A stretch of DNA of 49,330 nt. It comes from Terriglobales bacterium. Lineage in GTDB: Bacteria; Acidobacteriota; Terriglobia; Terriglobales; Acidobacteriaceae. Below are positions 521 to 13,748 of this stretch, piece by piece (position 1 is the first letter of the stretch; each line of letters opens with the position of its first letter). The notes under the pieces are model-generated. The model worked only from the letters and a program-made list of their open reading frames with translations. It ran no database searches and was not told the DNA's origin. The translations under genes and the position numbers were made by a program. The stretch is taken from the NCBI GenBank assembly GCA_025934735.1, contig JAICWP010000029.1:1-49330 (forward strand), given 5' to 3'.

Positions 521-689
521 GGTATAAACAGCTTAGACGATAGCGCCTTTTCGGAAAGACGGGCGGGGATGCTGCCATCCAAACAAGAACACATCGGGTG
601 TAAGAACAATTCACCCCTTCCTTTTCAATTTGTTTAGCATTCGTTGAAATGCTGGTTTGATGGAAGGAATCTTTTCCCTCATCAGACAA

Positions 690-1049
690 CTAAATCGAAC
701 GGACCTCATCAACAATAATCAGCAATTCCTCGTAATTCAGGGCGGTCATCCAAGCCTCTTTATGTTCTCTGAAGAAATCGAGGCTGTCGGGCACTTGAGG
801 GACAAGGACGGTCACGATACTCGTTTTCTCATGCATGTCTCTATTGCGTTTGGTGGAATGCCAAAATCCGTCGTAAACAGGATTTCCCTCAATAGCCGTC
901 ATCGTAAGTCCTCCGAAGTGGCGAAAGATCTCTGAAACGACTAGGCGAAGGTTCCGTGGAGGTATTTCAATTCCATCCTTGTCGGTAGTCGTAAGAAAGA
1001 CCTCTACTCGATAAAAATGCTTTGCGAGAGGATCGTCAATGTCTGACAT
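690..1049 (-). CDS. Hypothetical protein, 119 aa
   Basis: I do not recognise a family. The protein starts MSDIDDPLAKHF, is mixed alpha/beta in composition, has no membrane segment or signal peptide, and ends with a hydrophobic-acidic tail (ELLIIVDEVRSI). The composition is protein-like along its length, whereas the opposite-strand frame is not. It lies in the accessory region between the recombinase and the conjugation-like block and is read in the same direction as both. A role in element maintenance is possible but nothing in the sequence shows it. Confidence 0.65.
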   Translation of the reverse strand: MSDIDDPLAKHFYRVEVFLTTTDKDGIEIPPRNLRLVVSEIFRHFGGLTMTAIEGNPVYDGFWHSTKRNRDMHEKTSIVTVLVPQVPDSLDFFREHKEAWMTALNYEELLIIVDEVRSI

Positions 1050-1111
1050 AATAAAAAAGGTAAGCAGGGCTGCTTACCTTTGAGACAGAATACCCGGGCT
1101 TGGGTTGCCGC

Positions 1112-1369
1112 TTATGTTGCCACAACTTGGTATGGCACGCCGGCTCGCTTCAAAAGAGCAATGTGCTCTGGTCCGACGGCATACTTGTCCTCACCAACCA
1201 TGCCCACCTGACCGTGCGAAAAGAGAATTGCGAATCCCTTATCAGCGTGCTTCGGTTCAAACCGGATGACCGCACCTGAAATTTCAGGCTTCCTCAATCT
1301 GGCTGTTTTCTTTGATAAAGCTCTTTCGGTTCCGGTATGCACGGACTTCGTCCTTCGCTTCAGAGATGC
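1112..1369 (-). CDS. Hypothetical basic protein, 85 aa
   Basis: The frame could begin as far out as 1495, but I prefer the ATG at 1369: a GGGG stretch lies about 7 bases upstream, and the product then begins with a Lys/Arg/Thr-rich head (MASLKRRTKSV). The rest is a compact soluble domain with GAVIRFEPKHADKGFAILF and a C-terminal helix ending in VPYQVVAT. I see no known motif. It follows the 119-aa gene on the same strand with a 62-base gap, so the two may be co-transcribed. Confidence 0.55.
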   Translation of the reverse strand, partial: ASLKRRTKSVHTGTERALSKKTARLRKPEISGAVIRFEPKHADKGFAILFSHGQVGMVGEDKYAVGPEHIALLKRAGVPYQVVAT

Positions 1370-1869
1370 CATAGTGTACCCCATTGATCTTCTTAAATTA
1401 CCTGCTTCTAAAAGCCTAACTGTTTCTCCCTTGTTTTCAAGTGCTTGCGAAGGAAGGCCAACGAAACCTGCATCCGTAGAACGATATGCAAACATTTTGA
1501 GATGCCAAAGCTAACGATGGTGCAGGGGGTAACCGATAAGTAAACGCAGGGAAGACCTGCTGTCCGGTAGCCGATCGCCCCTTTGTCAACCTTGTGTGGC
1601 ATCAGAAGGACCTTTTAGGGCCGCTGTGGTTATCTTTGAGCTCCCAGTCTCCCGATTTTGGACCGCGTATTGTGCGTTTTGTGCCGATTGACGTCGAACC
1701 GCAACTATTGAAAATAGTAGCGATGATTGCGAGGAACACCCTTGATGGGGTTTGTGCTATGCCGCTACGCGACGAGATGCACGAGGCCTGGCTGTAGAGT
1801 CCAGCCGCCGTTTGTCGCAAGCCATTGCTCGAGAAGATGTAGGGAGAAACAAGTAAAAGCACTAAACAC
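1370..1869. other. Intergenic stretch without a convincing gene
   Basis: This 500-base stretch separates the minus-strand 85-aa gene from the plus-strand coiled-coil gene. Open frames exist on both strands (minus 1602-1922, plus 1594-1797), but their products have no recognisable motif, no ribosome-binding site and overlap each other. An upstream extension of the 85-aa gene to 1495 is the only plausible coding use. Confidence 0.5.
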
Positions 1870-2310
1870 ATGAAACAAATCTCACAATTTTCGTTGGCTA
1901 ACAGGAAGCACTTTGCCGACATGCTAGATGATGGCTACGCGGGTCTACGGCAGAAAGCGAAGCGTCGACTTCGTGAAAAGGCCGAGGTACTTCGAGAATC
2001 GTTGATCAAGGAGCACGCCGAGAAGAATGGGGCCAGCGCCGTACTGAAGCAGCTCGATGAAGCCGATCGGAAACGTACCGAGCTCATCGTCGAGTTGAAG
2101 CAGCTCGGATTTGAGCGAGCCGATCATGGGCTGGAGCTGTTCGACAGGGACACCAATCCTCTCGACGCAGTTATTGAAAAACGGATTGAGAAGGAACTTG
2201 GCAGTGAACGCGACATCGACGCACGGTTTGACAGTGCCCAACTCGCAATGCTCACGGTCTCGACGCTTCAGGATGCCCACCAGCTTCTGAAGTCTGTTCA
2301 GGACGTTTAA
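1870..2310 (+). CDS. Hypothetical helical, charged protein, 146 aa
   Basis: The product is almost entirely helical and rich in Lys, Arg and Glu. Residues 20-100 look coiled-coil (KRRLREKAEVLRESLIKEH, then a Leu-rich stretch ending in VELKQLGFERAD). No catalytic motif is visible. It reads opposite to the transfer-like genes and converges on the 75-aa gene at 2339. The start is the ATG at 1870; the only purine-rich tract (AGGGAG) lies about 25 bases upstream, too far to support it well. It may be a structural or DNA-associated accessory protein of the element; that is inference. A related layout (helical, 'LRRLGF'-like segment) appears in the 140-aa gene at 6128. Confidence 0.7.
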   Translation: MKQISQFSLANRKHFADMLDDGYAGLRQKAKRRLREKAEVLRESLIKEHAEKNGASAVLKQLDEADRKRTELIVELKQLGFERADHGLELFDRDTNPLDAVIEKRIEKELGSERDIDARFDSAQLAMLTVSTLQDAHQLLKSVQDV

Positions 2311-2338
2311 GTAAAACAAACTAAACTCTCCCTACATC

Positions 2339-2566
2339 TTAGCCGAGCCCATCACGCGAAGCCGCTTTTGCCCGGTGGGCTCGCCCATCGTGTTCGGTAC
2401 TCCCACAGGTTGAACACGGTTTCCTGACCTTGGCTTTCCCGGTATGCCCGAGTTCCCTGAGCTTTTTGTCTATGTCATCACGTTGTCGAAGCAGGTCCGT
2501 TATCGCCTGTGCTCTCAGAGCTTCAGCTTCCTTGAGCGCTTTCAATGCCCTGTCTACTGATTCCAC
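2339..2566 (-). CDS. Small protein with helical head and Cys/His tail, 75 aa
   Basis: Residues 1-40 form a charged amphipathic helix. The C-terminal half has CSTCGSTEHDGRAH, a Cys-x2-Cys followed by two His, which could bind zinc, although this is not a standard zinc-ribbon spacing. The start overlaps the end of the replication-relaxation gene by 13 bases, so the two are probably translationally coupled and the protein belongs to the same transfer-like operon as its last gene. The function is unknown; an accessory DNA-binding role is an inference from the Cys/His cluster. Confidence 0.65.
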   Translation of the reverse strand: MESVDRALKALKEAEALRAQAITDLLRQRDDIDKKLRELGHTGKAKVRKPCSTCGSTEHDGRAHRAKAASRDGLG

Positions 2567-3336
2567 ACTCCCTCCACTGGGTTAAACAGTGAATTCGTCT
2601 TTTCATCACTGCAGTTCAGGAATTCAAATGGGGTGTCTAGAGTTGAAACCCAAAACATCCTATGGTTAAAGCTCTCGCGTAGATGGTTAAGGAGATTTTC
2701 TCTCCGCCCTTCAGTCTGGGCAACGATAACGACACGAAAGAGTCGAAACCCCCATTCGTCTTCGCAAAGATCAGAATTGTAATAGTTGTAATACCTGGCT
2801 AGCTTGCGGAGAATCTGAGGCTTTCCATCTATATACCTGCCTTGTTTGGATTTTTCGATCTCAAGGAAGTAGTAAAACTCGTATTCTTTCGCGAGCGCAA
2901 AAATAGCATCAGGATATACGGTTTTCCGAAGGTCGCGCTGCTGCCAATAGAGGTCGTGGCACTGCTCGGCCGCGAGCTGCTTAAGGCACAGGTGGAAGCG
3001 GGTTATCTCGTATTCATGGTCGAGCGTCCGAGGAGAGTGCTCGTCGTTGGCCTTGCCCTCACCATTATCGATCCCCGCTGTCTGGGCAAGCGCTAAACCC
3101 TTTGAGGAAAGCCAGAAGATGGTCTCATAGGTGAGAAATTTCTTCGAGGAGTCATAATCAATGATCGGGCCGTGACGCAGATATCGGTAGAAGCCCTGGA
3201 GGATCCGTCGTATTCTCCGCTCGTGTGAGGTTTCCGTCGGCGAAGTATTTTCTACGAGGGAGTAAAAATCCCTCCGTGAGAGGTAGGCGTATTCAACTAG
3301 AAGCTCCAGTATTTTGTGCCTTTGCGGAGTGAGCAT
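2554..3336 (-). CDS. Replication-relaxation family protein
   Basis: The 260-aa product has the layout of the replication-relaxation (Replic_Relax) family found on conjugative plasmids and integrative elements. A winged-helix-like N-terminus (residues 5-60, HKILELLVEYAYLSRRDF) is followed by DHEYEITRFHLCL near 106-118, YPDAIFAL at 141-148 and FLEIEKSKQGR at 158-168. Asp143 with Glu159-x-Glu161-Lys162 resembles a PD-(D/E)xK nuclease core, which is my inference. Its start overlaps the coupling ATPase by 44 bases and its stop overlaps the 75-aa gene, so it is part of one operon. No classical relaxase is visible in the window, so this protein could supply the DNA-processing step. Confidence 0.75.
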   Translation of the reverse strand: MLTPQRHKILELLVEYAYLSRRDFYSLVENTSPTETSHERRIRRILQGFYRYLRHGPIIDYDSSKKFLTYETIFWLSSKGLALAQTAGIDNGEGKANDEHSPRTLDHEYEITRFHLCLKQLAAEQCHDLYWQQRDLRKTVYPDAIFALAKEYEFYYFLEIEKSKQGRYIDGKPQILRKLARYYNYYNSDLCEDEWGFRLFRVVIVAQTEGRRENLLNHLRESFNHRMFWVSTLDTPFEFLNCSDEKTNSLFNPVEGVWNQ

Positions 3337-4549
3337 GTCGGGTCAATCGTCGCGGAGAACCTGTGATGTCCTCCTGTGACTCTGATAACCGACGTGTCAC
3401 AAGTTTGCAAGAGTAACGCTCAATCGTGCGTGTTCTGATGTATTCTGCGTATGATTGGGATGACAGCGCCGGCGGTTCTGGGGTGTTGATAGTGTACGTT
3501 TCCCCGGTGTATGGCCTGTAAATCGCTTGGCCTTGTTTGAGGTGAGCCAGATTGTCGACGGCGATTTCACCTTTGAATTGTTTTGCATCCTTCTCGTGCA
3601 TTCGAAAAAGCACGAAGGTGGATATGTTCCCGAGAATTGAACTCTTCATCCTCGGTTCCAGTTGATCTAGGTACTGATGAGCAATCGTGAGACAGAGTTT
3701 ATATTTCCCGCCTTCCGACAGAATCGTGTCGAACGAAGATGTCTGAAAATTCTGGAACTCATCGACATAGAGAAAGAACGGCACCCTCTCCTGAGGCTTC
3801 TGGGCGGCTCGCTGCAGTGCCGACCGCTGTATCTTCGATACGAGGAGTGTCCCCAGGAGCTGTTTGGTCTCTTCCCCAAGCTTGGAGAGGTTCACGAGGA
3901 GAACCTGGCTTTTGTCCATCACTGAGGAAATCCTCAGTTTGGGCTCTGGGTGGCCAACGATCGTCTCGAGCACGGGCGTCAGAAGGAATTTGGTCATGCG
4001 GCTCGTGATCCCGAGTTTTGAATCTCCCCGTTCCTTGTCGAATTCCCCATCTTTCCTGAAGTATTGCCGAATGACCGGGGTGTCGCATTCTGCCGCTCGT
4101 TCTCGTCGGAAGGTCTCATCGGTAATCATGCGATGTATATCAAGGAACGTCGCCTCTTTATAGAATGCCAGCGCCCCAACGACATTGCGAAGAATGGAGT
4201 CCATGCGCACGCCGAAGTCAACGCCCGACAATCTCTTGAATGTGGAAATGATGTCGTCCGATAGGTATTCTTTTTCTAGATCTGTCTGAGCTCCAAAAAA
4301 GTCGAGGGGAATAGGGGCTGAAAAGTCGAGGTAAACGGTATCGTCGATCCGATGTTTGGGAATGTGGTGGATCATCTTGTTCACGAGATCGCCATGAGGA
4401 TCGATGACACACACTCCTTTGCCCCGGTCGATATCCTGGAGTGCCATCCAAAATATGAGGGTTGATTTCCCCTGCTGGGTCTTGCCCGCAACGTAGACAT
4501 GGCGCGTTCTTGCTGCGTCAGGAATACCGAATTCAGTCAGATTTGTCAT
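3293..4549 (-). CDS. Type IV coupling protein-like ATPase (VirD4/TraD/TraG superfamily), soluble form
   Basis: The 418-aa product is a RecA-fold DNA-pumping ATPase. Walker A is GKTQQGKS at residues 22-29, CVIDPHGDLV follows, and the Walker B segment YVDEFQNF lies near residue 260 with a downstream TIAHQYLDQLEP sensor-like stretch. Coupling proteins carry the nucleoprotein substrate to a conjugation channel. VirD4-type proteins usually have two N-terminal membrane helices; this one has none and begins almost at Walker A. The preceding gene, overlapping by 17 bases, encodes a two-helix membrane protein and may be the separated membrane half. Other assignments, such as a HerA-like translocase, are less likely given the replication-relaxation partner. 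Confidence 0.85.
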   Translation of the reverse strand: MTNLTEFGIPDAARTRHVYVAGKTQQGKSTLIFWMALQDIDRGKGVCVIDPHGDLVNKMIHHIPKHRIDDTVYLDFSAPIPLDFFGAQTDLEKEYLSDDIISTFKRLSGVDFGVRMDSILRNVVGALAFYKEATFLDIHRMITDETFRRERAAECDTPVIRQYFRKDGEFDKERGDSKLGITSRMTKFLLTPVLETIVGHPEPKLRISSVMDKSQVLLVNLSKLGEETKQLLGTLLVSKIQRSALQRAAQKPQERVPFFLYVDEFQNFQTSSFDTILSEGGKYKLCLTIAHQYLDQLEPRMKSSILGNISTFVLFRMHEKDAKQFKGEIAVDNLAHLKQGQAIYRPYTGETYTINTPEPPALSSQSYAEYIRTRTIERYSCKLVTRRLSESQEDITGSPRRLTRHAHSAKAQNTGASS

Positions 4550-5042
4550 AACCGATTTTTATCCCCTCATACTTCAGAGTCTTGGACGTTATGCTTGCGA
4601 TACGAACGTTAAATGCATGCACTCCGTAGTCGTTGATAACTGTGGATACAGCTTGTCGCACAACCGACTTCAGATCGTCACGTTTGGTGCTGCCTGACTC
4701 GGAAAGATGGCGGTCCAGAGCTTCTTGCGCTGCGTAAGAGATTCTCATCCTCGCATCTGGACGATTGAGTTCGGGGGGGATTTCATATGCGAGCACAATC
4801 TTAAATGTCTGATTTTCGAATGTCTGGTCAAAAACGGAAATGTCGGCCGACAATTCTGAGAAGCGCTTGAAGCAGCGGTGCGCGAGGTAAAGGCTCACGC
4901 TACCCATCATGATGAGGATCACGGGGCTTAAGCTGTTCGACGATGAATATCCGATAATAATCACAACTACGGTCAGTATCGTAAAAAAGAGATATTCACC
5001 GAAGCGCAATCGCGCGGCATATTGTCTGTAGCGAAAGCTCAT
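4533..5042 (-). CDS. Two-helix membrane protein, candidate membrane partner of the coupling ATPase
   Basis: Residues about 17-32 (FFTILTVVVIIIGY) and 40-55 (VILIMMGSVSLYL) are two membrane segments. A soluble C-terminal domain of about 110 residues follows, with no known motif. The gene is sandwiched between the 150-aa membrane-anchored gene (5-base gap) and the coupling ATPase (17-base overlap), so the products are probably made together. The helical-hairpin anchor matches the part that the soluble ATPase lacks. The split-coupling-protein reading is inference; the membrane topology is visible. Confidence 0.75.
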   Translation of the reverse strand: MSFRYRQYAARLRFGEYLFFTILTVVVIIIGYSSSNSLSPVILIMMGSVSLYLAHRCFKRFSELSADISVFDQTFENQTFKIVLAYEIPPELNRPDARMRISYAAQEALDRHLSESGSTKRDDLKSVVRQAVSTVINDYGVHAFNVRIASITSKTLKYEGIKIGYDKSD

Positions 5043-5047
5043 GAATT

Positions 5048-5500
5048 TTACCTGCTAACTTGTACTCGGAGTGTGCCTGTCCCGCTCACTCCCATTTCAC
5101 AGCCGTAAGTACCGCAGGGACTACTCCCAAGTTCAGGTTCAGGCTGATGCGGAACAACGGTCAAGGTTCTTGTGTTTCCCTGTTGGTCAACCCAGCGGAC
5201 GACATATCCGAGTTCGTTAAGATTGATGGCATCGAAACGTTTACCGGGGGGCGTACGGAACCACTGTATGCAATTTCGCTGCAGAGGAAATCTCGTTTCA
5301 GCTTTCACTTCGATTCGATCTGAGCTACAAGGTGGACATTCGTGAAAACCACAGTAAAGCCATGGATAACGCGCCTCAACTTGGGTGCCCTGAGTCGAAC
5401 TGTTCAATCTGCAGTTTTTGAACGCTAGCCCAATGAGGAGGAAGACCAGGATTATCGATATCGTTTTGTAGGGCTGCGGCATCATCCATTCAGTTGTCAT
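5048..5500 (-). CDS. Cys-rich protein with N-terminal membrane anchor or signal, 150 aa
   Basis: A hydrophobic stretch at residues 14-27 (ISIILVFLLIGLAF) is followed by an exported-looking domain with eight Cys (NCRL, YCGFHECPPCSS, NCIQW, PCGTYGCEMG), which suggests disulfides in the periplasm. There is no lipobox. It is the first gene of the minus-strand transfer-like operon. An internal Met at residue 6 is an alternative start. I do not recognise the family. The position suggests a cell-envelope component of the transfer apparatus; this is inference. Confidence 0.65.
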   Translation of the reverse strand: MTTEWMMPQPYKTISIILVFLLIGLAFKNCRLNSSTQGTQVEARYPWLYCGFHECPPCSSDRIEVKAETRFPLQRNCIQWFRTPPGKRFDAINLNELGYVVRWVDQQGNTRTLTVVPHQPEPELGSSPCGTYGCEMGVSGTGTLRVQVSR

Positions 5501-5845
5501 AGGCGCCTGTCGCAGAACTCAAAAATCAAAAAGCTTCGATTAAACCGGGCTCGAAGTCGGCGCAAAGCGGTAAGCGGATGCAAGCGCCCGTCGGTAGCCT
5601 GGCAGTCCTGGTAACCGAACGTAAACCCAGGCAGCGCAAGATGTTGATGGTGACCTGCTCGCATCGGTACAACCGTCCAGCCGTGGACAGACCGTGGATG
5701 GGTCCCTGGACACCCGAAAAGCGGGCGTATAATACACCCACCTCTACCCTTTTGGGTAGGGGTACTCGGCCCGCGAGCGACGCTCGTTTCGGCCGGGCTT
5801 CTCGGCTCCCGTCAAGGGAGAGGAATTCACCTTTGAGGTTTGGAG
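5501..5845. other. Divergent intergenic region with a perfect short hairpin
   Basis: This region separates the minus-strand transfer-like operon from the plus-strand excisionase-like gene and probably holds both promoters. A perfect inverted repeat lies at 5744-5759 (CTACCC, TTTT loop, GGGTAG), just downstream of a TATAAT at 5728. It could be an operator or a leader hairpin. A minus-strand frame covering 5526-5891 has no protein-like features. Confidence 0.55.
5706..5733 (+). promoter_or_regulatory. Candidate sigma-70 promoter for the excisionase-like gene
   Basis: A perfect -10 box TATAAT lies at 5728-5733. The best -35 candidate is weak (CTGGAC at 5706-5711, 16-base spacer). The predicted transcript starts about 105 bases before the ATG at 5846 and contains the hairpin at 5744-5759. 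Confidence 0.45.
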
Positions 5846-6055
5846 ATGGATTCCAACGAGAAGTGGTACTCAGTGAAGGAATTTGCTGCATCTCTGTCGG
5901 TAGGTCGAGATACGGTAGCCCGATGGATTCAGAAAGGCGTTCTGAGGGCGTTTCGTTTTCCGTGCTCAGGTCACAAACGAACTCGGAAATACGACTCGTA
6001 TCGGATCTCTGAAGCGGAACGGCAAAGATTCATCCGTTCGTGGATGACTTCGTGA
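5846..6055 (+). CDS. Excisionase/MerR-like helix-turn-helix DNA-binding protein, 69 aa
   Basis: The product has the small winged-helix of the excisionase (HTH_17) group: YSVKEFAASLSVGRDTVARW at the N-terminus, then a wing with a basic hairpin and YRISEAERQRFI. Such proteins bind bent DNA at att sites or act as small regulators. I place the start at the ATG at 5846, which has GAGG 7 bases upstream, rather than at the TTG two codons earlier. A strong terminator follows the stop by 7 bases, so it is a single-gene unit. In this island it could steer excision or regulate the divergent transfer-like operon. Confidence 0.75.
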   Translation: MDSNEKWYSVKEFAASLSVGRDTVARWIQKGVLRAFRFPCSGHKRTRKYDSYRISEAERQRFIRSWMTS

Positions 6056-6062
6056 GTACAGC

Positions 6063-6086
6063 GGCGAGGCTTCGGCCTCGCCTTTT
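6063..6086 (+). terminator. Rho-independent terminator with UUCG loop
   Basis: A perfect 8-bp stem (GGCGAGGC at 6063-6070, GCCTCGCC at 6075-6082) closes a TTCG tetraloop and is followed by TTTT. It directly follows the excisionase-like gene. Confidence 0.85.
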
Positions 6087-6127
6087 CGTTCAGGAAGCGG
6101 AATGTGGGGCAAGGGTTGGTGAATGTT

Positions 6128-6550
6128 TTACTGAGCAAGTAACGGCTCCGCAATCTCGCAAGCCGATTCCGCGGATTTCGCGGTCAGGACCTTTGCGATT
6201 GCAACGTCGAACTTGTTAAGCGACTTCGTGGGCTGCGTGTCTATATGCCGAGCCTTGTGGTAGGCCGTCCAGACGCTTTCGGGGGCATCGTACGCCATTT
6301 CGATTCGTCCCCTGTCGCCCAGAACAAATCCGAGCCGCCTCAGGTTGGCCGTTGCCTCTTCGGATTGTCTCTTGTGGTCGAGGACCTGTGAAACGAGCTT
6401 CTTGCCTCCCACATCGTCCAACAGCTTTGCAAAAATCTCGGCATCGCTTGGCACGTTGGGTCCGAGTTTTCTCTCCTCGTCTGACTTTGCATTCTTAAGC
6501 ATGGTGACGAGTTCCGCTCGCCATGCTTCGAGTTGATGGGTGTTGTTCAT
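6128..6550 (-). CDS. Hypothetical helical protein, 140 aa
   Basis: The product is soluble, helical and charged, beginning MNNTHQLEAWRAEL. A central segment (LVSQVLDHKRQSEEATANL, then RRLGFVLGDRG) resembles the 'KQLGFERADHG' stretch of the coiled-coil protein at 1870, which hints at a distant relation; I cannot test this. There are no catalytic motifs and no membrane segment. It converges on the excisionase-like gene. The function is unknown. Confidence 0.65.
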   Translation of the reverse strand: MNNTHQLEAWRAELVTMLKNAKSDEERKLGPNVPSDAEIFAKLLDDVGGKKLVSQVLDHKRQSEEATANLRRLGFVLGDRGRIEMAYDAPESVWTAYHKARHIDTQPTKSLNKFDVAIAKVLTAKSAESACEIAEPLLAQ

Positions 6551-6611
6551 GGTTTGTAGAAATTGACTGCAACCTTGCCCCGCTTTCCGTCATGATGCTT
6601 GCCCGCTCTTG

Positions 6612-6755
6612 TCAGGAAACGGCACGAATATCCATTCGCACCTCGTAAGGCATGTGGCCCGCGTCGCGGTGCATGCCATCGACTCCCATAAGAAATGTTC
6701 CAAGGAGTCGAACAGGCGAAGAATCACGGTGCCAGTGTGCCAAGGGCACGCTCAT
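6612..6755 (-). pseudogene. Possible frameshifted continuation of the 68-aa gene at 6793
   Basis: In the +1 frame relative to the 68-aa gene, an open frame continues past its stop. It gives PRNPALLAALLMSVPLAHW and then SSPVRLLGTFLMGVDGMHRDAG, which is protein-like with a short hydrophobic stretch. It ends at a stop at 6612. The ATG at 6755 has no ribosome-binding site, so it is either a remnant joined by an indel, a frameshift product, or chance. The rest of 6551-6792 shows no other coding signal. Confidence 0.3.
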
Positions 6756-6792
6756 GAGTAAAGCCGCCAGAAGCGCAGGATTCCGTGGGATT

Positions 6793-6999
6793 TCAGTTCT
6801 TGGGAATTTGTATCTGCCCGATGATGGCAAAGCGGAGGATGAGCCGGTCCACGATCGTATGGACGTACATATTGTAATAAAGGGGGTTGCCCGTCTTTTC
6901 GTAGAGCCGGAACATGCTGTCATCGTGGATGCGGGGTGACGAACCTTCCATGAGCCAATAACGGTAGAGATAGAGCAGCGGGATATCGAAGTCGGTCAT
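6793..6999 (-). CDS. Small hypothetical protein, 68 aa, coupled to the upstream membrane protein
   Basis: The ATG at 6999 overlaps the TGA of the upstream gene (ATGA), a classic coupling arrangement. The product is rich in Tyr, Leu and Ile (IPLLYLYRYWLMEG at residues 6-19; VDRLILRFAIIGQIQI near the end) and may be membrane-associated. I do not recognise a family. With the upstream 93-aa protein it forms a two-gene operon downstream of a promoter overlapped by a palindromic operator. The frame may continue, after a shift, to 6612. Confidence 0.6.
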   Translation of the reverse strand: MTDFDIPLLYLYRYWLMEGSSPRIHDDSMFRLYEKTGNPLYYNMYVHTIVDRLILRFAIIGQIQIPKN

Positions 7000-7277
7000 T
7001 TGAAGAACATCGCCCCCAGCCTAACGAGATCGTGGAAAAGCTGCGTGTGGTAACAAGCGCGAAGCACGACGAAATCGAGTGTGAGCAAGAAAGGCAGGAG
7101 GACTGTCGAGAGCGCGTCCATCCCCCTGCTCGCCTGGAGGCCTGGGACATGCTCATGGAATCTGCACGGACGAGTGACCTGCACGACAGTCGTCCTGCGG
7201 CGCGCAATCAAGCGGATAACAATGAGCCCGAGGATCACGAAGAGGATCATCCAGATCACGTGGCGCTTTTTCTTCAT
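6996..7277 (-). CDS. Small membrane protein, 93 aa, Xre-palindrome-controlled operon
   Basis: I take the ATG at 7277, giving MKKKRHVIWMILFVILGLIV, a basic head followed at once by a membrane helix. A second hydrophobic stretch (STVLLPFLLTLDFVVL) lies near residue 60. An AGGGG tract precedes the start by about 10 bases. A near-consensus promoter lies 40-70 bases upstream and overlaps a perfect palindrome, and a divergent Xre repressor gene begins at 7412. A small, tightly controlled membrane protein next to a repressor recalls toxin-like, holin-like or exclusion genes of mobile elements, but no homology supports any of these. Confidence 0.65.
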   Translation of the reverse strand: MKKKRHVIWMILFVILGLIVIRLIARRRTTVVQVTRPCRFHEHVPGLQASRGMDALSTVLLPFLLTLDFVVLRACYHTQLFHDLVRLGAMFFK

Positions 7278-7317
7278 AGGACCACACCCCTCTGATGATA
7301 TGCCGTACAAGTAATAT

Positions 7318-7346
7318 ATTATGCATATATGCAATTGACTTGTCAA
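7318..7346 (-). promoter_or_regulatory. Strong sigma-70-like promoter for the 93-aa/68-aa operon
   Basis: On the minus strand TTGACA (7346-7341) is followed after exactly 17 bases by CATAAT (7323-7318), a perfect -35 and a five-of-six -10. The predicted start is about 35 bases before the ATG at 7277. The -35 box lies inside the palindrome at 7331-7350, so a bound regulator would block polymerase. Confidence 0.7.
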
Positions 7347-7350
7347 TTGC
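7331..7350. promoter_or_regulatory. Perfect palindromic operator, probably bound by the adjacent Xre protein
   Basis: Two perfect 9-base arms (GCAATTGAC and GTCAATTGC) flank TT. A second palindrome, GCATATATGC (7323-7332), abuts it. The site lies between the divergent Xre gene and the small membrane-protein operon, on top of the latter's -35 box. Dimeric Xre/Cro repressors typically bind such sites; which protein binds here is inference. Confidence 0.7.
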
Positions 7351-7411
7351 TCCGGATAGCGAATCTCTTGTCGTTCTTCCCATTGGGCTGCCATTATTGG
7401 TCTCACTCGAT

Positions 7412-7627
7412 ATGGGCGGGATCGACTGGAAATCGGTGGGCAGGAGAATCCGGGAGCTCAGGGGATTCGAGAAGAATCAAAAGCAGTTCGCCCACATGCT
7501 GGGGATCAGCCAAAGCCAGCTAAGCCGATACGAAAAAGGCAAACACGAGATGGGCGCGGAGATCCTCCTGCGGATCTCCGAAAGGTGCGGGAAGAGCATG
7601 GAGTGGCTCCTCACCGGCCGCGATTAG
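7412..7627 (+). CDS. Xre/Cro-CI family transcriptional regulator, 71 aa
   Basis: The product is a single HTH_3 domain: IGRRIRELR-like first helix (VGRRIRELRGFEKNQKQFA), then the helix-turn-helix MLGISQSQLSRYEKGKHEMG and a closing helix with SMEWLLTGRD, the usual end of this family. The start is the ATG at 7412; the open frame extends upstream across the operator but has no protein-like content there. It lacks a cleavable or sensor domain, so control depends on its level or on a partner. The palindrome 62-81 bases upstream is the obvious binding site and would couple its own expression to that of the divergent operon. Confidence 0.85.
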   Translation: MGGIDWKSVGRRIRELRGFEKNQKQFAHMLGISQSQLSRYEKGKHEMGAEILLRISERCGKSMEWLLTGRD

Positions 7628-7632
7628 GGCGT

Positions 7633-8190
7633 CTATGCCGAAGCTCGCAGGATGCTCTGTTCGGCAAGCTGCCGCGCGTATTGCAGGACTTTCGCCTGGC
7701 TGAAATGAGGTTTGACTTCATGGACAAGCTTTGCGATCTGTTCGAGGTCGACCCGTTTCCGCCCGCCAGTCGCCTCTTGGTCGACATATACGATCGTACC
7801 GACCAATTCCAGTTCGGCGCTCGTGAACGCTCCGAACTTCTTCACGACCCAGTCGATATCCTTCGAATACCTGGCGAGGAACTTCTCGCCCCTGCGCTCG
7901 AGCCACTTCGCGTTCCGGCCGGGCTTGATGCGGTAGCCATAACCGCCGGCATAGAGCTCCAATTTCGTCTTGACTGCTTCCAGAGCTTCGGCAGTCGAAA
8001 GGTCGGAGAGGACATCCGAATCGAAGGGCCCATAGGAATACAGCGTGAAGCGGTAATTGAGCGGAACCCCTCTCACCGTCTGCAGCAAATACATGTATTT
8101 CATAAGGGCGGTCCGGCCCATGTAGCCGCCCTTCGATTTGCTTGCAAGAGCCGGTAACATCGCAAGGCGCCATTCATTTCTTTCGGCCAT
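7633..8190 (-). CDS. YwgA-like protein (Panacea/DUF4065-like fold), partner of an HD hydrolase
   Basis: The 185-aa product opens with the layout of YwgA-like and Panacea-type proteins: GRTALMKYMYLLQ (helix with the conserved Lys-x2-Tyr pattern), LNYRFTLYSYGPFDSDVLSDL, then a helical C-terminal half. In Bacillus subtilis, ywgA lies next to ywfO, which encodes an HD hydrolase; here too its start overlaps the end of an HD gene by 17 bases. Panacea domains act as antitoxins in some systems, so a regulatory or neutralising role towards the HD enzyme is possible. The assignment rests on motif memory and gene pairing. Confidence 0.7.
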   Translation of the reverse strand: MAERNEWRLAMLPALASKSKGGYMGRTALMKYMYLLQTVRGVPLNYRFTLYSYGPFDSDVLSDLSTAEALEAVKTKLELYAGGYGYRIKPGRNAKWLERRGEKFLARYSKDIDWVVKKFGAFTSAELELVGTIVYVDQEATGGRKRVDLEQIAKLVHEVKPHFSQAKVLQYARQLAEQSILRASA

Positions 8191-9457
8191 GTGCAGTCAT
8201 CTCCCTGACTTTGCGTTCCGCTGCGTCGAACTTCTCCCGCGCGACATACAAGAAAACTTGGTTGTTGGCCTTAAGGCCCCGGACAACGCTCGAATATCTT
8301 GAGAGGGGCTTTACGTCGTCGGGGTTGTGATCGTCGACAACGGGGATATCGGGTTCCCCCGTCTTGTACCAGCTCTTTGCGGCCGATTCCTCTGCGACGA
8401 CGAGTCTGCCCAATCTGTTCTTAACCTTTTCGAGCACCTCGAAATCCTTTTTGCTGGAAACCTCGGGCGTCTCGTACACCCGCCGGTAGTGATTCCGCGT
8501 CCTCAAACGATCCCCGTCCTCGCCGCCCCCTCCGCTCGCAAGGAGGCCCAAGACCTTCCAATCGTCCCATTTGAGGTAGGCGGACAAACCCCGCCCCGTG
8601 GGCGGCGGGAACTGCCCGTCCGGCAAAAGGTCTCTCAATGCTCCGCGCAAGTGGACATCATATGCCACACGGGTCTTGTGGAAATAAACTTGTGTGAACA
8701 TAAAATACCGTGCGAGCACCAGTCCTTCGGCTGCATGCCATCCGCCGAGCGATACCCCGAGCTGGGGAGGATGGCCACCACGGCTCCGGATCGCCCGGAT
8801 CGTCGTAAGGATGCGCCTCAGGTCGAATTTTCCGTATTCGACCCCTGCGTGGTACGAATCCCTGAGCAGGTAGTCCATCCTGTCCGCGTCCATCTGGCCG
8901 TCGATGAGGTCCCGCCAGAAGATCGGTTGCCTGGCTTTGGCGCTCCCCTCGACGAGGGTGGCAATGTCCTCCGCATGAAGCCCGTAATTGGCGTTGAGGT
9001 CGTGTTCCTCGATCGCCGAACGCAAATCCGACCTGATGATCGCAACCGAGTAGTCCTCGTGCTTGTATCTCTTTCCCTTCCCTCGCTTCGGAAAGAGCTC
9101 TTCCGAGGCGTGCGAGAACGGAGAGTGGCCCACGTCATGGAGCAGGGCAGCGAAGCGCACGAGCTGCCGGTCGCGTCCGAGACCGTCCTTGTTGTACGCG
9201 AGGTCCGCTTTGAGGATCTCACCGGATTTGTCGCAAATCGCATCGTAGAGCCGCGTCGCGACATGCATGACGCCCAAGGAATGTTCGAAACGCGTGTGCA
9301 TGGCGCCCGGATAGACGTAATCGGTCCACGCGAGCTGCCGGATGCGGCGAAGCCGCTGAAACGCCGGCTGCGAAATTACAGTCCGTTCCCAGTCATTGAG
9401 CGCTATAAACCCGTGGATCGGGCAACGGATCTCGTCTATTCGGTGAGTATTCGCCAA
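8174..9457 (-). CDS. HD-domain phosphohydrolase, dNTPase/YwfO-like
   Basis: The 427-aa protein has the metal site of deoxynucleotide triphosphohydrolase-like HD enzymes: His59 in HTRFEHSLGV, His107-Asp108 in AALLHDVGHSPFSH, and a later Asp in DADRMDYLLRDSYHAGVEYG. Family members hydrolyse dNTPs or other phosphate esters. The C-terminal ~150 residues are variable. The gene heads a two-gene operon with the YwgA-like protein (17-base overlap) and lies close to the island's att scar, a common location for cargo such as defence genes. Some HD dNTPases restrict phages by depleting dNTPs; whether this one does is not shown by sequence. Confidence 0.85.
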   Translation of the reverse strand: MANTHRIDEIRCPIHGFIALNDWERTVISQPAFQRLRRIRQLAWTDYVYPGAMHTRFEHSLGVMHVATRLYDAICDKSGEILKADLAYNKDGLGRDRQLVRFAALLHDVGHSPFSHASEELFPKRGKGKRYKHEDYSVAIIRSDLRSAIEEHDLNANYGLHAEDIATLVEGSAKARQPIFWRDLIDGQMDADRMDYLLRDSYHAGVEYGKFDLRRILTTIRAIRSRGGHPPQLGVSLGGWHAAEGLVLARYFMFTQVYFHKTRVAYDVHLRGALRDLLPDGQFPPPTGRGLSAYLKWDDWKVLGLLASGGGGEDGDRLRTRNHYRRVYETPEVSSKKDFEVLEKVKNRLGRLVVAEESAAKSWYKTGEPDIPVVDDHNPDDVKPLSRYSSVVRGLKANNQVFLYVAREKFDAAERKVREMTAHGRKK

Positions 9458-9671
9458 AACTCATACAGCGCACGATTATAGGCGAACAAAGGGCGAAAGT
9501 CCACCGACAATCGAGCGGAACGCACAATTATGCCTGAACTTGGGGCATTGGTGTGGCCGAAATGAACCATGAATTACACCGTCGCCCAAAAAAGGAACGG
9601 CAAATGTCCGCTTCTTGAAACAAAAAACTCAGGCCGGAGGTCGGTTAAGAGGTATATTTGCCTCCGCGCCT

Positions 9672-10058
9672 ATGCTTCCGCGAATTGTTTGGACAGCTGC
9701 TTTCGGAGCCTTATGTCTCGTTTCTGGTGCTAGCGCATCCGGAAAGTCCAAGCCACACACGTATGAACGGGGTGTGATCGTCGGATGGAACGAGACGCCG
9801 GCAGCGCTCTCAACGACTCCTGTACGTGGCGCTTACGGCGGGGTTCACCCTCGCCCCACAATTACGTACGGCAGAAAATTCTACGAGCTGAGCGCGAATG
9901 GGATGACCTACACCCTCAACAACTGCAGCACGTTCCAGCCAAAGGAGGCGGTTCAGTACCGCACTGATGGTGGCAGGCTATACATCGCACGTGGCAACGG
10001 GCAAGAATACAAATGCAGGATCATGGGAGCCAGGGCCGAAAAGAGGCAACCTCGTTGA
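9672..10058 (+). CDS. Secreted hypothetical protein, 128 aa
   Basis: From the ATG at 9672 the product begins with a signal peptide (MLPRIVWTAAFGALCLVSGA, cleavage probably after ASA). The mature part is small and basic, with FYELSANGMTYTLNNCS and a paired second Cys in GQEYKCRIMG, which could form one disulfide. A TTG at 9615 would add 19 residues and is less natural. This style of small exported protein is common in acidobacterial genomes, but I know no function. It is the last gene before the att scar at 10205. Confidence 0.6.
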   Translation: MLPRIVWTAAFGALCLVSGASASGKSKPHTYERGVIVGWNETPAALSTTPVRGAYGGVHPRPTITYGRKFYELSANGMTYTLNNCSTFQPKEAVQYRTDGGRLYIARGNGQEYKCRIMGARAEKRQPR

Positions 10059-10457
10059 CGAGCTCATCGGCTCACGAAAAATATCGAATGGGGCGATATT
10101 TTCGTGTACCTATCGCGTACCAAATGGCCGCGTTTTGCGAGATTCCAGCGTTTGTAGCTTGCAATGTAATCAGTAACTTACGTATTATCAGTGACTGGTT
10201 GGAATTCGAATCCCTCTCCCTCCGCCATATTCCGGTTGGTTTACTGGGCTGGGATATCTGCTGGCGCAAGCGGCATGATGTCGGCTGCTGATACGGAGTG
10301 ACACACGGGAATTTGGCCGCGCCGAACTGTCCAATGCCCGGCTCCGGCTGTCCTTCCGTACACTGTCCTATGGCACTCTCGCGTTTTGACGGGCGCGTCC
10401 GGCAGGCGCAGAATCCGCTTAGCTCATTCGCTACATACAGCCGTACTGGAGCCGATA
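10059..10457. other. Island-chromosome junction, non-coding
   Basis: This 400-base stretch contains the tRNA 3'-end scar at 10205-10227. The minus-strand frame at 10072-10269 reads through the scar to give the WRRERDSNS peptide that is typical of translated tRNA 3' ends and is not a gene. No promoter, RNA gene or coding region is evident in the remainder. Confidence 0.7.
10205..10227 (+). other. Attachment-site scar: last 23 bases of a tRNA (serine type)
   Basis: The sequence reads as a T-loop (TTCGAAT), the 3' half of the T stem (CCCTC), the acceptor strand (TCCCTCC), discriminator G and CCA. The preceding bases do not pair as a T stem, and no matching GGAGGGA acceptor strand lies within 100 bases upstream, so this is not a complete tRNA. 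The GGAGGGA/TCCCTCC-G acceptor suggests tRNA-Ser. Integration into a tRNA 3' end leaves the intact tRNA at one end and a copy like this at the other. Its plus orientation places the element to the left, which agrees with the accessory genes there. Confidence 0.8.
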
Positions 10458-10652
10458 ATGTTCGCCCTCCTCGCGTTTGTTTATAAGGTTGTGCCCTTTT
10501 TGCGCTGCTCCCACCGCTTTTCCTGGCCGCAGACCGGAGCCGATGGCCAGGACTATCAGGTTTGCCTGCGCTGCGGCGTTCGCTACCGTTACGACTGGGA
10601 CTCCATGCGCCAGGTCGGCAAGCCTAAGGTGCAATCGGGCGCCTGGACGTAA
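10458..10652 (+). CDS. Small zinc-ribbon-like protein, 64 aa
   Basis: From the ATG at 10458 the product has a short hydrophobic head (MFALLAFVYKVVPFL) followed by CSHRFSWP and CLRCGVRYRYDW, a Cys-His plus Cys-x2-Cys set that can hold one zinc. Similar short proteins recur in acidobacteria. No ribosome-binding site is evident, and the open frame extends 24 codons further upstream without protein-like content. The function is unknown. Confidence 0.6.
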   Translation: MFALLAFVYKVVPFLRCSHRFSWPQTGADGQDYQVCLRCGVRYRYDWDSMRQVGKPKVQSGAWT

Positions 10653-10781
10653 TCATGTTCGCAATGAACAATTCCTCTGACCTGCCGACGACAAACTGCG
10701 CTGGCCGTTAGCGGAGACGCAGGCATACCCGCAAGCGCCACCCATCATGTAGTTTCGGCCTTTCACTATTCTGCCGGCGTA

Positions 10782-10979
10782 TTACTTCAACACCCGCAGA
10801 TTCGCCAATTTGACAGGTTTACCCAGAATCTCGGTCTCTGCCGTGACCCAGTCGTCAAAGTCGTGGCCATCCTGCCGGCCACGCAGCTCGAACAACTGAA
10901 ATGCCCTCAGGCGGATGCGCTCATCCATGTCAATGGTGGGAGTCGTTTCCTTTCGGGGCTGAGGTTTAGCAATGGCCAT
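10782..10979 (-). CDS. DUF2934 family protein, 65 aa
   Basis: Residues 20-60 match the DUF2934 pattern: IRLRAFQLFELRGRQDGHDF, then DDWVTAETEIL. This is a short family common in acidobacteria and proteobacteria whose function is unknown. The start at 10979 has AAGGAG 7 bases upstream. The Lys/Pro/Thr-rich head is probably disordered. It is transcribed alone on the minus strand. Confidence 0.85.
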   Translation of the reverse strand: MAIAKPQPRKETTPTIDMDERIRLRAFQLFELRGRQDGHDFDDWVTAETEILGKPVKLANLRVLK

Positions 10980-11276
10980 GATGTTTCTCCTTAGTTTATG
11001 GGCAAGCGCTACGACGAGGTGGAAACTGCTCTGAGCTGGTGCTTAGCGCTTTCCCTAGTTGCACCGTAACACCACCTCAGGACAGCGTCTGTGACGGGCC
11101 TGAAAAGAAGCCGGCGAAGTCCAGCTCTATGCCCAAACTGGCACTGCTCCTGGGTGACTACTCGAGCCTGCTTTGGCCTGAGTGGAGCATTTTGCCGTCG
11201 CCTTACACCAACCCGCAGCGCCATTGACCTTCCCTCACGCCCCGGCCTAACATACCCGCCCATCGGAGGGCTTTCG

Positions 11277-13748
11277 TTGCTCGGGGAGACCATCTCGCAT
11301 TACCGCATTTTGGGCCAACTCGGAGCCGGTGGCATGGGCGTGGTTTATGAGGCTGAAGACCTGAAATTGGGCCGCCATGTTGCCCTCAAGTTCCTTCCCG
11401 AGCGTCTGGGCGGAGAACCGCAGGCCCTGGAGCGTTTCCAGCGGGAAGCGCGCGCCGCCTCCGCCCTCAATCATCCCAACATCTGCACCATTCACGACAT
11501 TGATGAGAGTGCCGGCCGGTGGTTTCTGGTAATGGAACTACTTCAGGGCGAAACGCTGGCGCGCACAATCGCGGCCCGCCCGCTCGAACTGGAAACCCTG
11601 CTCGACCTCGGCACGCAAATTGCCGACGGCCTGGATGCGGCGCATGCGCACGGCATCGTTCACCGCGACATCAAGCCCGCCAACATTTTCGTCACCGCGC
11701 GGGGGCAGGCCAAAATTCTTGATTTCGGCCTGGCCAAGGTGCAGCCCGTGGCGGACGCCGCCTCCGTGCCGCCCACCATGACCGCGCCTGAGCACCTCAC
11801 CAGCCCTGGTATCACCGTGGGCACCATGGCCTACATGTCGCCGGAGCAGATACGTGGTTTGCAATTGGACGCCCGCACGGACCTGTTTTCCTTTGGCGCT
11901 GTGCTTTACGAGATGGCAACTGGGGCGCTTCCGTTTCCCGGCGCCACCTCTGGGGTGATCTTCGAGGCCATCCTCAATCGCACGCCCGCCGCACCCGTTC
12001 GCCTCAACCCCACGCTTCCGGCCCGGCTGGAGGAGATCATCAGCAAGGCCCTGGAGAAGGACCGCGAGGTGCGTTACCAGTCGGCGGCGGAGATGCGCGC
12101 CGACCTGAAACGGCTGAAGCGCGACACGGAATCAGGGCGCATGGCGGTAGCCGCTCCCGTCTCCCGGCCAAAGCGCACAGGCGTGCGCGGCGCCCTACTA
12201 GTGGCGGGGATCCTGGCCTTGGGCCTGGCGATTTTCGCCAGCGAATATTATCTGCGCTCGCGGGTAATTCGCCGCAATTCCGCCGCCCAGGCGCAACTCG
12301 CTTCCGCGGCTGCCGCTCCGGTGCCGCATACTCTGGCGGTTCTACCCTTCCACGATATTTCCGGGGGCGCGCAAGAGAACAGTTGGGGCATCGGCATGAC
12401 CGATGCCGTCATAAGCCGCTTGGCCTCCCTGCACGACTTAGCCGTGCGCCCCACCAGTTCGGTGCTCAAGTACGCGCAAGGACCCGCGGACCCCATGAAG
12501 GCGGCGCAGGAGTTGCAAGTGGAGTCGGTGCTGGACGGAACGTACCAGACCGTGGCTGGAAACGTGCGCGTTTCGGTTCAGTTGATTAACGCGCATGATG
12601 GCAGCACCCGCTGGGCCCAGCGTTACGACCTACACAGCAGCGACATGTTCAAATTTGAAGATGAACTGGCCACCCGCGTGGTGGATGGCATGAGCGTGCA
12701 GGTTTCCGGTGCCGAGCAAAACTCGCTACAGCAGCCGCTCACCGCCTCCCCGGAAGCGTACAACGATTACCTGCAGGCGCGCTTTTACCGTAACGAATAC
12801 TTCATGCATTCCCGGCGCGAAAGCCTCCGCGAAGGCCGCCGTCTTTTGCAGCGGGCGCTCCAGGTCGATCCCAATTTCGCGGATGCGGAAGCCATGCTGG
12901 CCGACATGTACCTGATGGAAGCGGCCAATTTCGAGGAAAACGCCGCCGCCAACCTGCGCCTCTCCGCCGCTGCCGCCGAGCGCGCCTTACAACTCAACTC
13001 CCGTTCTCTGGAGGCGCTCCTCGCGATGGGCGATGTGTATGCCGAAACCGGCCAGAATGCGCAAGCCATCCGCACCCTGCGGCAGGCTATGGCTCTCGCC
13101 CCTAATTCGGAGACCGGTTGGGATTACCTTGGCTACGCCTACCACTACGCCGGCCTGGTCCAGCAGGCGGAACAGGCTTACCGCCGCAGCCGCCAGTTGA
13201 ACCCCACCACACCTCGGATTTACTGGATGCACGGCCGCATGCTGCTTTACGTGGGCAGGCCCGACGAGGCCGAACAGGTCATGCGCCAGGCCCTAGCTGC
13301 CAATCCCGATCAGTACAAGGCTATGGCATTCCTTGGCGAGTTCCTCTACTACCAGGGCAAATGGAAAGAGGCCGAGCCGATTCTTGAACGTGCCGTCCAA
13401 CTCGGGTCAGACACCGGCGACCAGGTTCCGCTTTTGCTGGCGGCCTTCCTCTATGCCTCCCGCGGCGAGCGGCAAAAGATTGATCCGCGCCTGTTTCAAT
13501 ACCAGGTCCAGAACGTCATAGATGGCGACCTAGCCTACTGGGTCGGCAGCATATACGCCCTTCTCGGCAATGCAAATGAGGCGGTTCTGTGGCTGAAGCG
13601 GGCCGTGGAATTAGGCAATCAGAACTATCCGTGGTTCCAGCGCGATAAAAACTGGGACAAGTTGCGCGGTGATCCCCAGTACCAGCAGGTGATGGCCCAG
13701 GTGCGCCGCCAATGGCAGCAATACACCGCCGAGTTCGGCCAGACTTAG
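11277..13748 (+). CDS. Membrane-bound Ser/Thr protein kinase with TolB-like and TPR domains
   Basis: I start at the TTG at 11277 because GGAGGG lies 6 bases upstream and the kinase fold begins immediately. The product is 823 aa. It has a Gly-loop [10 protein letters not shown] at 16-25, catalytic Lys38, HRDIKPAN at 129-136, DFG at 149-151 and SPEQIRG, a complete Hanks-type kinase. One membrane helix lies near 306-325. The exterior part opens with a TolB/FlgO-like segment ([11 protein letters not shown]) and continues in TPR repeats to the C-terminus. Kinase plus TPR receptors of this shape are frequent in acidobacteria. The gene stands alone. Substrate and signal are not apparent. Confidence 0.93.

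What the first reader, a model, noticed from the sequence alone, without database searches (positions are those of the whole stretch)
7633..9457. YwgA-like/HD-hydrolase pair as candidate island cargo
A dNTPase-like HD enzyme and a Panacea/YwgA-like partner overlap by 17 bases and lie next to the att scar. The pairing recalls ywgA-ywfO of Bacillus. Panacea domains can neutralise toxins and HD dNTPases can limit phages, so a defence or toxin-antitoxin role deserves a test.
Basis: partly seen in the sequence, partly recalled or inferred. Interest (0 to 1): 0.65.

Follow-up and report, generated by a model that had tools for sequence, protein, structure and literature searches.

The report
Mobile dNTP-cutting enzyme with DarG-like partner
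Two overlapping bacterial genes encode a relative of the human antiviral enzyme SAMHD1, which destroys DNA building blocks, and a small partner shaped like the part of the DarG antitoxin that holds a toxin in check; such pairs are found on phages and mobile islands, so this is a good candidate for a phage-defence switch that still has to be tested.

Summary
In detail: an HD gene (8174-9457, minus) and a YwgA-like gene (7633-8190, minus) overlap by 17 nt, 0.75 kb from a tRNA-Ser 3'-end fragment (10205-10227).

The HD protein has the SAMHD1/EF1143 fold and all its metal and catalytic residues. The partner has no Pfam Panacea match; it is the DarG C-terminal (DarT-binding) domain by profile (hhalign 99.2%) and fold (Z 16.4 to 7YK3, next 9.4).

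The pairing is real. In 396 genomes of the phylum the 8 best YwgA places (own included) all lie beside an HD gene; so do 12 of 29 HD loci in viral contigs. The 23 HD genes ranking next after the six best, all paired, have no partner. Pairs occur beside phage terminase or integrase genes, inside an Hma defence operon and beside restriction genes, but also in ordinary chromosomal surroundings; enrichment near defence genes is modest (about 5 of 12 loci against 1 of 12).

Most likely it is a toxin-antitoxin-like dNTP-depletion module whose partner restrains the enzyme. Toxicity, neutralisation and protection are untested. It resembles Clover and DarTG in logic, belongs to neither, and was not found in the papers searched.

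The parts
8174..9457 (-). HD gene, 427 aa, TTG start: SAMHD1/EF1143-type dNTP triphosphohydrolase (activity predicted); metal residues H59, H107, D108, D192; catalytic dyad H116/E119
   Evidence: ORF; Pfam HD; alignments to EF1143 and SAMHD1; invariant residues; AF2 model pLDDT 89.9; Z 40.0 to 2hek, 36.2 to a SAMHD1, 35.2 to EF1143
7633..8190 (-). YwgA-like partner, 185 aa, ATG start: DarG C-terminal-domain family, winged-helix part plus helical part
   Evidence: hhalign to DarG 99.2%, E 6e-20; 7yk3_B 2.2e-8; pLDDT 93.1; 7yk3 Z 16.4 over 161 residues
8174..8190 (-). 17-nt overlap of the HD 3' end and the partner 5' end (translational coupling likely, inferred)
9475..9503 (-). promoter-like site TGGACT-17-TATAAT, 17 nt before the HD start codon (consensus match only)
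   Evidence: 5 promoter-like sites found in the 2.5-kb region, mean 1.1 in shuffles
10205..10227 (+). tRNA-Ser 3'-end fragment, candidate attachment scar at the island edge
7295..7627 (+). Cro/C1-type HTH regulator, convergent neighbour (5 bp between the stop codons); not shown to belong to the module
3293..4549 (-). TraG/VirD4-like ATPase, island context
   Evidence: TraG-D_C 1.3e-6; PADLOC mad8 5.9e-15
2554..3336 (-). Replication-relaxation-like protein, island context
   Evidence: Replic_Relax 4.6e-5, 24.0 bits, just under the 25.3-bit cut-off

Best explanation
It is a mobile two-gene module of toxin-antitoxin type. The HD protein is a dNTP triphosphohydrolase that, when free, empties the dNTP pool. 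The overlapping YwgA-like gene makes a DarG-C-terminal-domain-like protein that binds the enzyme and holds it inactive in healthy cells. A phage cue (partner lost when host synthesis stops, or a phage product that binds the partner or raises a dNTP) frees or activates the enzyme, dNTPs fall, and phage DNA replication stops. Shown by sequence: the two families, intact catalytic residues, recurrent pairing and order, co-inheritance, mobile and partly defence-linked placement. Inferred: dNTPase activity of this protein, direct binding, inhibition, the trigger, and protection.
For: HD: EF1143/SAMHD1 homology, fold Z 35-40, invariant H59, H107, D108, H116, E119, D192, Y196, R199, D200, with the spacing of the CloA residues H117, H126, E129. 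Partner: DarG C-terminal domain by profile and fold; in DarTG that domain occludes the active site of the toxin (passage in PMC11481870). Gene order as in DarT-DarG (effector first, partner second; L007). Pairing: the 8 best YwgA places, own included, have HD adjacent; 12 of 29 viral HD loci have YwgA directly downstream; 0 of the 23 HD loci L057-L079. Spacing: of 16 places measured, 15 have HD upstream, and in 14 of these the gap is about -59 to +36 nt (start codons of four are approximate; the fifteenth, L015, is damaged). Mirror tree over 25 pairs r 0.85, 0 of 5000 permutations. The paired state needs at least 4 changes on the HD tree. Context: terminases; integrase, serine recombinase, HsdR, type ISP, TIR; Hma operon, AbiEii, DNA methylases, GmrSD, Mu-type transposase. 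In the two damaged pair loci seen, the HD frame is broken in both; an intact HD beside a broken partner was not seen.
Against: No experiment. 4 of 12 bacterial pair loci (L086, L090, L091, L094) sit among ordinary genes by eye. Defence proximity is modest: about 5 of 12 pair loci (two of them from one genus) against 1 of 12 control loci with AbiEii, and the controls also have kinase-type and mad3/mad6 hits. Of 21 Hma loci opened, HD-YwgA is in 1 (the one I started from) and DarTG in 1, so the shared place is anecdotal. The Priestia pair lies among housekeeping genes. 17 of 29 viral HD loci have no partner. Partner charge is not conserved (-5 to +10), so the negatively charged ssDNA mimicry described for DarG does not simply carry over. 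The winged-helix half also matches PadR/MarR regulators (Z up to 9.4).
Confidence: 0.5

Rival explanations
1. Housekeeping or quality-control dNTP regulator: the HD enzyme trims dNTP pools or removes damaged dNTPs, and the partner is an allosteric regulatory subunit; mobile copies are just copies.
For: EF1143 is a dNTP-pool enzyme (PMC8177086 passages); Priestia pair in a chromosome-like run of genes; 4 of 12 bacterial pairs in ordinary surroundings.
Against: Sporadic distribution (10 of 396 genomes); G160 and G396 have a second HD gene but only one YwgA match each, so they carry an apparently unpaired copy too; presence in phage genomes.
Confidence: 0.2
2. The partner is an activator, sensor or targeting subunit (for example it binds DNA or a phage protein and switches the dNTPase on), not an inhibitor.
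For: Winged-helix N-terminal half; basic partner in the window (net +9).
Against: The closest family member with a described action, the DarG C-terminal domain, is an inhibitor; partner charge varies in sign.
Confidence: 0.15
3. The partner is only a transcriptional autoregulator of the operon.
For: Winged-helix similarity to PadR/MarR (Z up to 9.4).
Against: The full-length match is to the DarG C-terminal domain (Z 16.4, 161 residues); in L087 and L088 a separate BrnA-like gene precedes the HD gene (L088 by similarity).
Confidence: 0.07
4. The HD protein acts on another substrate (other nucleotide or nucleic acid), with the rest of the scheme as in the best explanation.
For: The HD family is chemically diverse (PMC8177086 passages); weak Cas3-HD match (1.9e-3, below cut-off).
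Against: Sequence and fold are specifically SAMHD1/EF1143-like over 365-400 residues.
Confidence: 0.08

Closest known systems
DarTG (DarT toxin, DarG antitoxin)
   Same: Partner belongs to the DarG C-terminal domain family; effector gene first, partner second in L007 and L190; DarG also lies beside HmaB in L006, L007 and L190
   Different: No DarT and no macro domain; the effector is a dNTPase-type HD protein, not a DNA ADP-ribosyltransferase
Clover (CloA dNTPase plus CloB nucleotidyltransferase; PMC12265719, abstract and section 2)
   Same: HD dNTPase restrained by a second gene; same metal quartet and HE dyad
   Different: Partner is not a nucleotidyltransferase, so restraint would be by protein contact and not by p3diT; the HD protein is EF1143/SAMHD1-type, with only a short stretch matching dGTPase models
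dGTPase nucleotide-depletion defence (Tal et al. 2022, recalled; seen here only as citations)
   Same: Predicted dNTP depletion against phage
   Different: Two genes; another HD subfamily (PADLOC dGTPase 1.9e-11 over residues 27-121 only)
EF1143 / ywfO-ywgA of Bacillota
   Same: Homologous HD and homologous partner in the same order in Priestia megaterium
   Different: The Priestia HD falls in another branch of the HD tree, among unpaired enzymes; no function of the Bacillus pair was found in print here
PanAT (Panacea/DUF4065 antitoxins; PMC8832971, passages)
   Same: Small domain found in two-gene loci with many different effectors
   Different: No Pfam match of the window protein to the Panacea model

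Membership tests
SAMHD1/EF1143-type dNTP triphosphohydrolases | HD metal residues H..HD..D and catalytic H/E | tested here: met
   invariant in A4 and A10; aligned to EF1143 and, for the N-terminal half, SAMHD1
SAMHD1/EF1143-type dNTP triphosphohydrolases | fold over the whole chain | tested here: met
   Z 40.0 (2hek, 365 residues, rmsd 2.4), 36.2 (5yhw, 400, 3.1), 35.2 (3irh, EF1143, 382, 2.8)
SAMHD1/EF1143-type dNTP triphosphohydrolases | dNTP hydrolysis, tetramer, nucleotide activation | not testable with these tools
   needs enzyme assay; residues of the allosteric site were not compared
DarG C-terminal-domain family | homology to the DarT-binding domain | tested here: met
   hhalign 99.2%, E 6e-20 over 169 columns; 7yk3_B 2.2e-8; Z 16.4
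DarTG system | DarT partner and macro or NADAR domain | tested here: not met
   the partner is 185 aa without such a domain and its neighbour is the HD gene
PanAT (Panacea) | match to the Pfam Panacea/DUF4065 model at its cut-off | tested here: not met
   only a chance-level Pfam line (Retrotran_gag_3, 0.15); a distant relation of folds is not excluded
Clover | nucleotidyltransferase partner CloB | tested here: not met
   the partner matches the DarG C-terminal domain over nearly its whole length and no nucleotidyltransferase model in Pfam, NCBIfam or PADLOC
Type II toxin-antitoxin modules | two overlapping or abutting genes inherited together, sporadic and mobile | tested here: met
Type II toxin-antitoxin modules | toxic effector neutralised by direct binding | not testable with these tools
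   needs expression and binding assays
ywfO-ywgA pair | both genes homologous, same order | tested here: met
   Priestia megaterium L041; orthology of the HD genes is not supported by the tree

The most novel reading that the evidence does not exclude
A so far undescribed class of phage-carried and island-carried immunity in which a SAMHD1-type dNTPase is gated by a protein, not by a nucleotide signal; and, more broadly, the DarG C-terminal fold is a general effector-gating module that has been joined to DarT, to dNTPases in several separate HD lineages, to HsdS-like tails and to a proteasome-like hydrolase.
Probability: 0.42. Interest if true: 0.78.

Novelty: new variant of a known kind. Interest (0 to 1): 0.62.

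Why it matters
dNTP depletion is a shared antiviral tactic of animals (SAMHD1) and bacteria (dGTPase, Clover), and its cost is self-harm. A recurrent pair in which a SAMHD1-type enzyme comes with a DarG-antitoxin-like protein would show a second, protein-based way to keep such an enzyme safe, would give a function to the unstudied ywgA family, and would make the DarG C-terminal fold a predictor of new toxin-antitoxin or defence pairs.

Tried and rejected
Panacea membership: Pfam gives no such match for the partner; kept only as a functional analogy. Membership in DarTG or Clover: rejected on effector or partner (membership rows). Acidic ssDNA mimicry: partner net charge runs from -5 to +10 over 25 pairs, so not proposed. 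Shared slot with DarTG in Hma operons: 21 of the 28 genomes with HmaB were opened; HD-YwgA in 1 (G376, the locus I started from), DarTG in 1 (G226); L006 and L007 were met separately. Anecdotal. YwgA single-protein scans of viral contigs found nothing, nor did two HD single-protein scans, and two returned only the query's own contig; HD alignments worked. Plasmids: 1 YwgA match in 72,556 records, a haloarchaeal gene with no HD gene annotated nearby. 33 plasmid records have an HD match; 10 of these neighbourhoods were opened and 1, Priestia, has YwgA by the HMM. Phage records: none for YwgA. Att site: no direct repeat of 18 nt or more frames the island in 1-13000. No Panacea structure stood among the listed PDB matches, which does not exclude the fold.

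Dropped or limited rows: L114 repeats L113 and L132/L133 are one contig; L118 and L130 have under 500 nt of room downstream; L084 is a truncated HD. Gene calls in fetched loci are longest-ORF calls and include shadow ORFs in cases and controls alike. Damaged pairs: L015/L092 (G288; a stop in the HD stretch at the contig edge and a stop in the partner frame) and L080/L090 (G387; HD frame split in two, partner intact); they were read as they stand. Of the PADLOC families, 61 of 86 and 8 of 33 were not shown.

Full report
Observation. HD runs from a TTG at 9457 to 8174 on the minus strand; the partner runs from an ATG at 8190 to 7633, so their ends overlap by 17 nt and HD is upstream. The N-terminus from the TTG aligns with the starts of its relatives. 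The window is one whole contig (C50) of a 4.94-Mb, 50-contig genome. GC is 48-58% in the first 10.5 kb and about 57-64% beyond; the stretch with most of the pair is at 58%, so composition alone does not prove that the pair is foreign. The left part holds a TraG-like ATPase and a replication-relaxation-like protein. At 10205-10227 there is a 23-nt match to the 3' end of a tRNA-Ser(CGA), 22 of 23 identical to the copy on contig C20, with no match for the reversed control pattern. This is a plausible attachment scar 0.75 kb beyond the HD start, but a second copy was not found in the window.

The HD protein. It matches Pfam HD and HD_assoc_2, and its best solved relatives are 2hek, EF1143 (2o6i/3irh/4lrl) and, further down, SAMHD1. 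The AlphaFold2 model (pLDDT 89.9) aligns to 2hek with Z 40.0 (365 residues, rmsd 2.4), to a SAMHD1 (5yhw) with Z 36.2 (400, 3.1) and to EF1143 (3irh) with Z 35.2 (382, 2.8). H59, H107, D108, D192, H116 and E119 are invariant in the alignments. The distances H107-H116 and H107-E119 equal those between CloA H117, H126 and E129 as given in the Clover paper (PMC12265719, abstract and section 2 read). EF1143 hydrolyses dNTPs (PMC8177086, passages). So dNTP hydrolysis is the best guess, unproven for this protein.

The partner. Pfam gives nothing useful. NCBIfam and PADLOC point to DarG, in each case to the C-terminal part of the model. A profile of 14 partners (A8) against a profile of 11 DarG proteins (A9) gives 99.2% probability, E 6e-20, over 169 columns. 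Among PDB sequences the only good match is 7yk3 chain B, DarG of the DarTG complex (2.2e-8). The AlphaFold2 model (pLDDT 93.1) has two chains of 7yk3 as its only Foldseek matches with E <= 0.001 and reaches Z 16.4 over 161 residues, the next row, a PadR regulator, being at 9.4 over 89 residues. In DarTG this domain occludes the DarT active site (PMC11481870, passages; the structure paper by Deep et al. was seen only as a reference).

Pairing. Of 100 genomes in the search of relatives, 7 (own included) have a YwgA match. Of the nine loci L002-L010, six have the HD gene next door; L006 and L007 are DarG, and L008 is a lone YwgA between what look like type III mod and res genes. In 396 genomes of the phylum, 28 have a match at 29 places; 10 of the 29, own included, lie beside an HD gene: the eight best places, L020 and L035. 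In L035 the order is reversed, YwgA first. The other 19 are, by my reading of the proteins, 10 DarG (one truncated), 3 HsdS-like proteins with a YwgA tail and 6 others. In the reverse direction, 98 of 396 genomes have an HD match at E <= 1e-10. Of the 30 best HD places, the six best are all paired, the next 23 (L057-L079) are all unpaired, and the thirtieth (L080, a split HD) is paired; lower places were not tested. In IMG/VR, an alignment of 12 diverse HD proteins found 29 loci; 12 have a YwgA-like gene directly downstream on the same strand and 17 have none. L113 and L114 are near-copies, so 11 are distinct.

Evolution. Over 25 pairs, HD and partner distances correlate with r 0.85; none of 5000 permutations reached it, the highest being 0.42. 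This shows co-inheritance and does not by itself prove contact. On an HD tree of 25 paired and 22 unpaired proteins (quick method, several long branches) the paired label needs at least 4 changes. Pairing was thus gained or lost several times, and the Priestia ywfO-like gene sits among unpaired enzymes of Listeria, Paenibacillus, Aerococcus and one viral contig. Two damaged pairs were met: in G387 the HD frame is split and the partner is intact; in G288 both stretches hold a stop. An intact HD beside a broken partner was not seen, which fits restraint, but two cases weigh little.

Context. I opened up to 20 kb around 12 bacterial pair loci. L095: the pair lies between HmaC and HmaB of an Hma defence operon. 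L096: AbiEii, a SIR2-family match and a DNA methylase. L097: Mu-type transposase with TnsA/TnsC-like neighbours (the last by eye), a methylase/ResIII pair and GmrSD. L087 and L088: an Eco57I-type enzyme or fragment, and BrnA directly before HD (BrnA in L088 by similarity to L087). L092: PIN-domain gene. L089: Y1 transposase. L093: a DarG-like fragment and a PIN-like gene by eye. L086, L090, L091, L094: ordinary genes by eye. PADLOC at 1e-15 hits 86 families among 129 neighbours of the 12 pair loci, against 33 families among 122 neighbours of 10 control HD loci and 6 (all AbiEii, one protein) among 23 neighbours of the other two. Families are redundant and only the first 25 are listed, so the fair statement is about 5 of 12 pair loci (L087, L088, L095, L096, L097; 4 if L087 and L088 count once) against 1 of 12 control loci with a clear defence gene; the controls also have kinase-type (PD-T4-6 and others) and mad3/mad6 hits that I did not resolve. 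Viral contigs: L082 has terminase small and large subunits next to the pair (PHROG 8.8e-22 and 1.9e-115) and L085 a CI-like repressor. In L083 the pair lies between two long ORFs with weak tail matches; in L081 only one of five ORFs tested, not an adjacent one, has a weak tail match, and its neighbours resemble those of L083 by eye. L116 has an integrase, L113 a serine recombinase, L112 HsdR, L115 a type ISP enzyme and L125 a TIR protein.

Mechanism. The most economical reading is effector plus restraint. A dNTPase can harm the host, as Clover shows: mutating the CloB active site made the operon toxic (PMC12265719). The partner family includes a described inhibitor that works by binding its effector. 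Gene order, overlap and mobility are those of toxin-antitoxin modules. The trigger is unknown. The partner could instead activate or target the enzyme, and its winged-helix half leaves autoregulation open.

Novelty. Searches of the open-licence PMC library for YwgA, YwfO, EF1143 with HD domain, DarG with YwgA or Panacea, dNTPase with two-gene and antitoxin, dGTPase with nucleotide depletion, and HD domain with DarG listed no paper on this pair; two searches showed 20 of 24 and 12 of 177 papers. The COG1078 query listed 10 of 23,020 papers, none holding that term, and tells nothing. YwfO appears only in passing (PMC4993169 and PMC3814617, passages; PMC3694923, listing only). A survey of Tn7-like cargo lists dGTPase nucleotide depletion but not this pair in the passages seen (PMC8649781). 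Subscription papers were not searched. The kind (dNTP-depletion defence, toxin-antitoxin logic) is known; the combination appears to be a new variant.

Noticed in passing
L023, L028, L031: Proteins that read as HsdS specificity subunits carry a C-terminal YwgA/DarG-like domain (by eye; the window partner also hits PADLOC Specificity_I at 6.6e-5).
   Followed up: no
L037:1297-2636: A YwgA-like gene abuts a gene that looks, by eye, like a proteasome/HslV-type hydrolase; L021 and L030 show similar tight pairs with unknown 248- and 202-aa ORFs.
   Followed up: no
L006, L007, L190: DarG (with DarT seen in L007 and L190) lies next to HmaB of the Hma defence system, the operon in which L095 has HD-YwgA.
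   Followed up: partly
L087:8355-8657 and L088:4760-5071: A BrnA-antitoxin-like gene directly precedes the HD gene, making a likely three-gene operon (Pfam for L087).
   Followed up: partly
L130, L131, L133 upstream of HD: HD genes of another lineage on viral contigs have a different small (about 120 aa) upstream neighbour; the L131 one has no Pfam match.
   Followed up: no
window 3293-4549: The TraG-like ATPase of the island matches PADLOC mad8 (5.9e-15); its role in the island is unclear.
   Followed up: no
window 10205-10227: tRNA-Ser 3'-end fragment; no tRNA gene with an exact match was found in the assembly, the best being 22 of 23.
   Followed up: yes
window 8174-9457: The window's HD protein is basic (pI 9.3, net +9); the other 24 paired HD proteins run from 5.7 to 8.1.
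   Followed up: no
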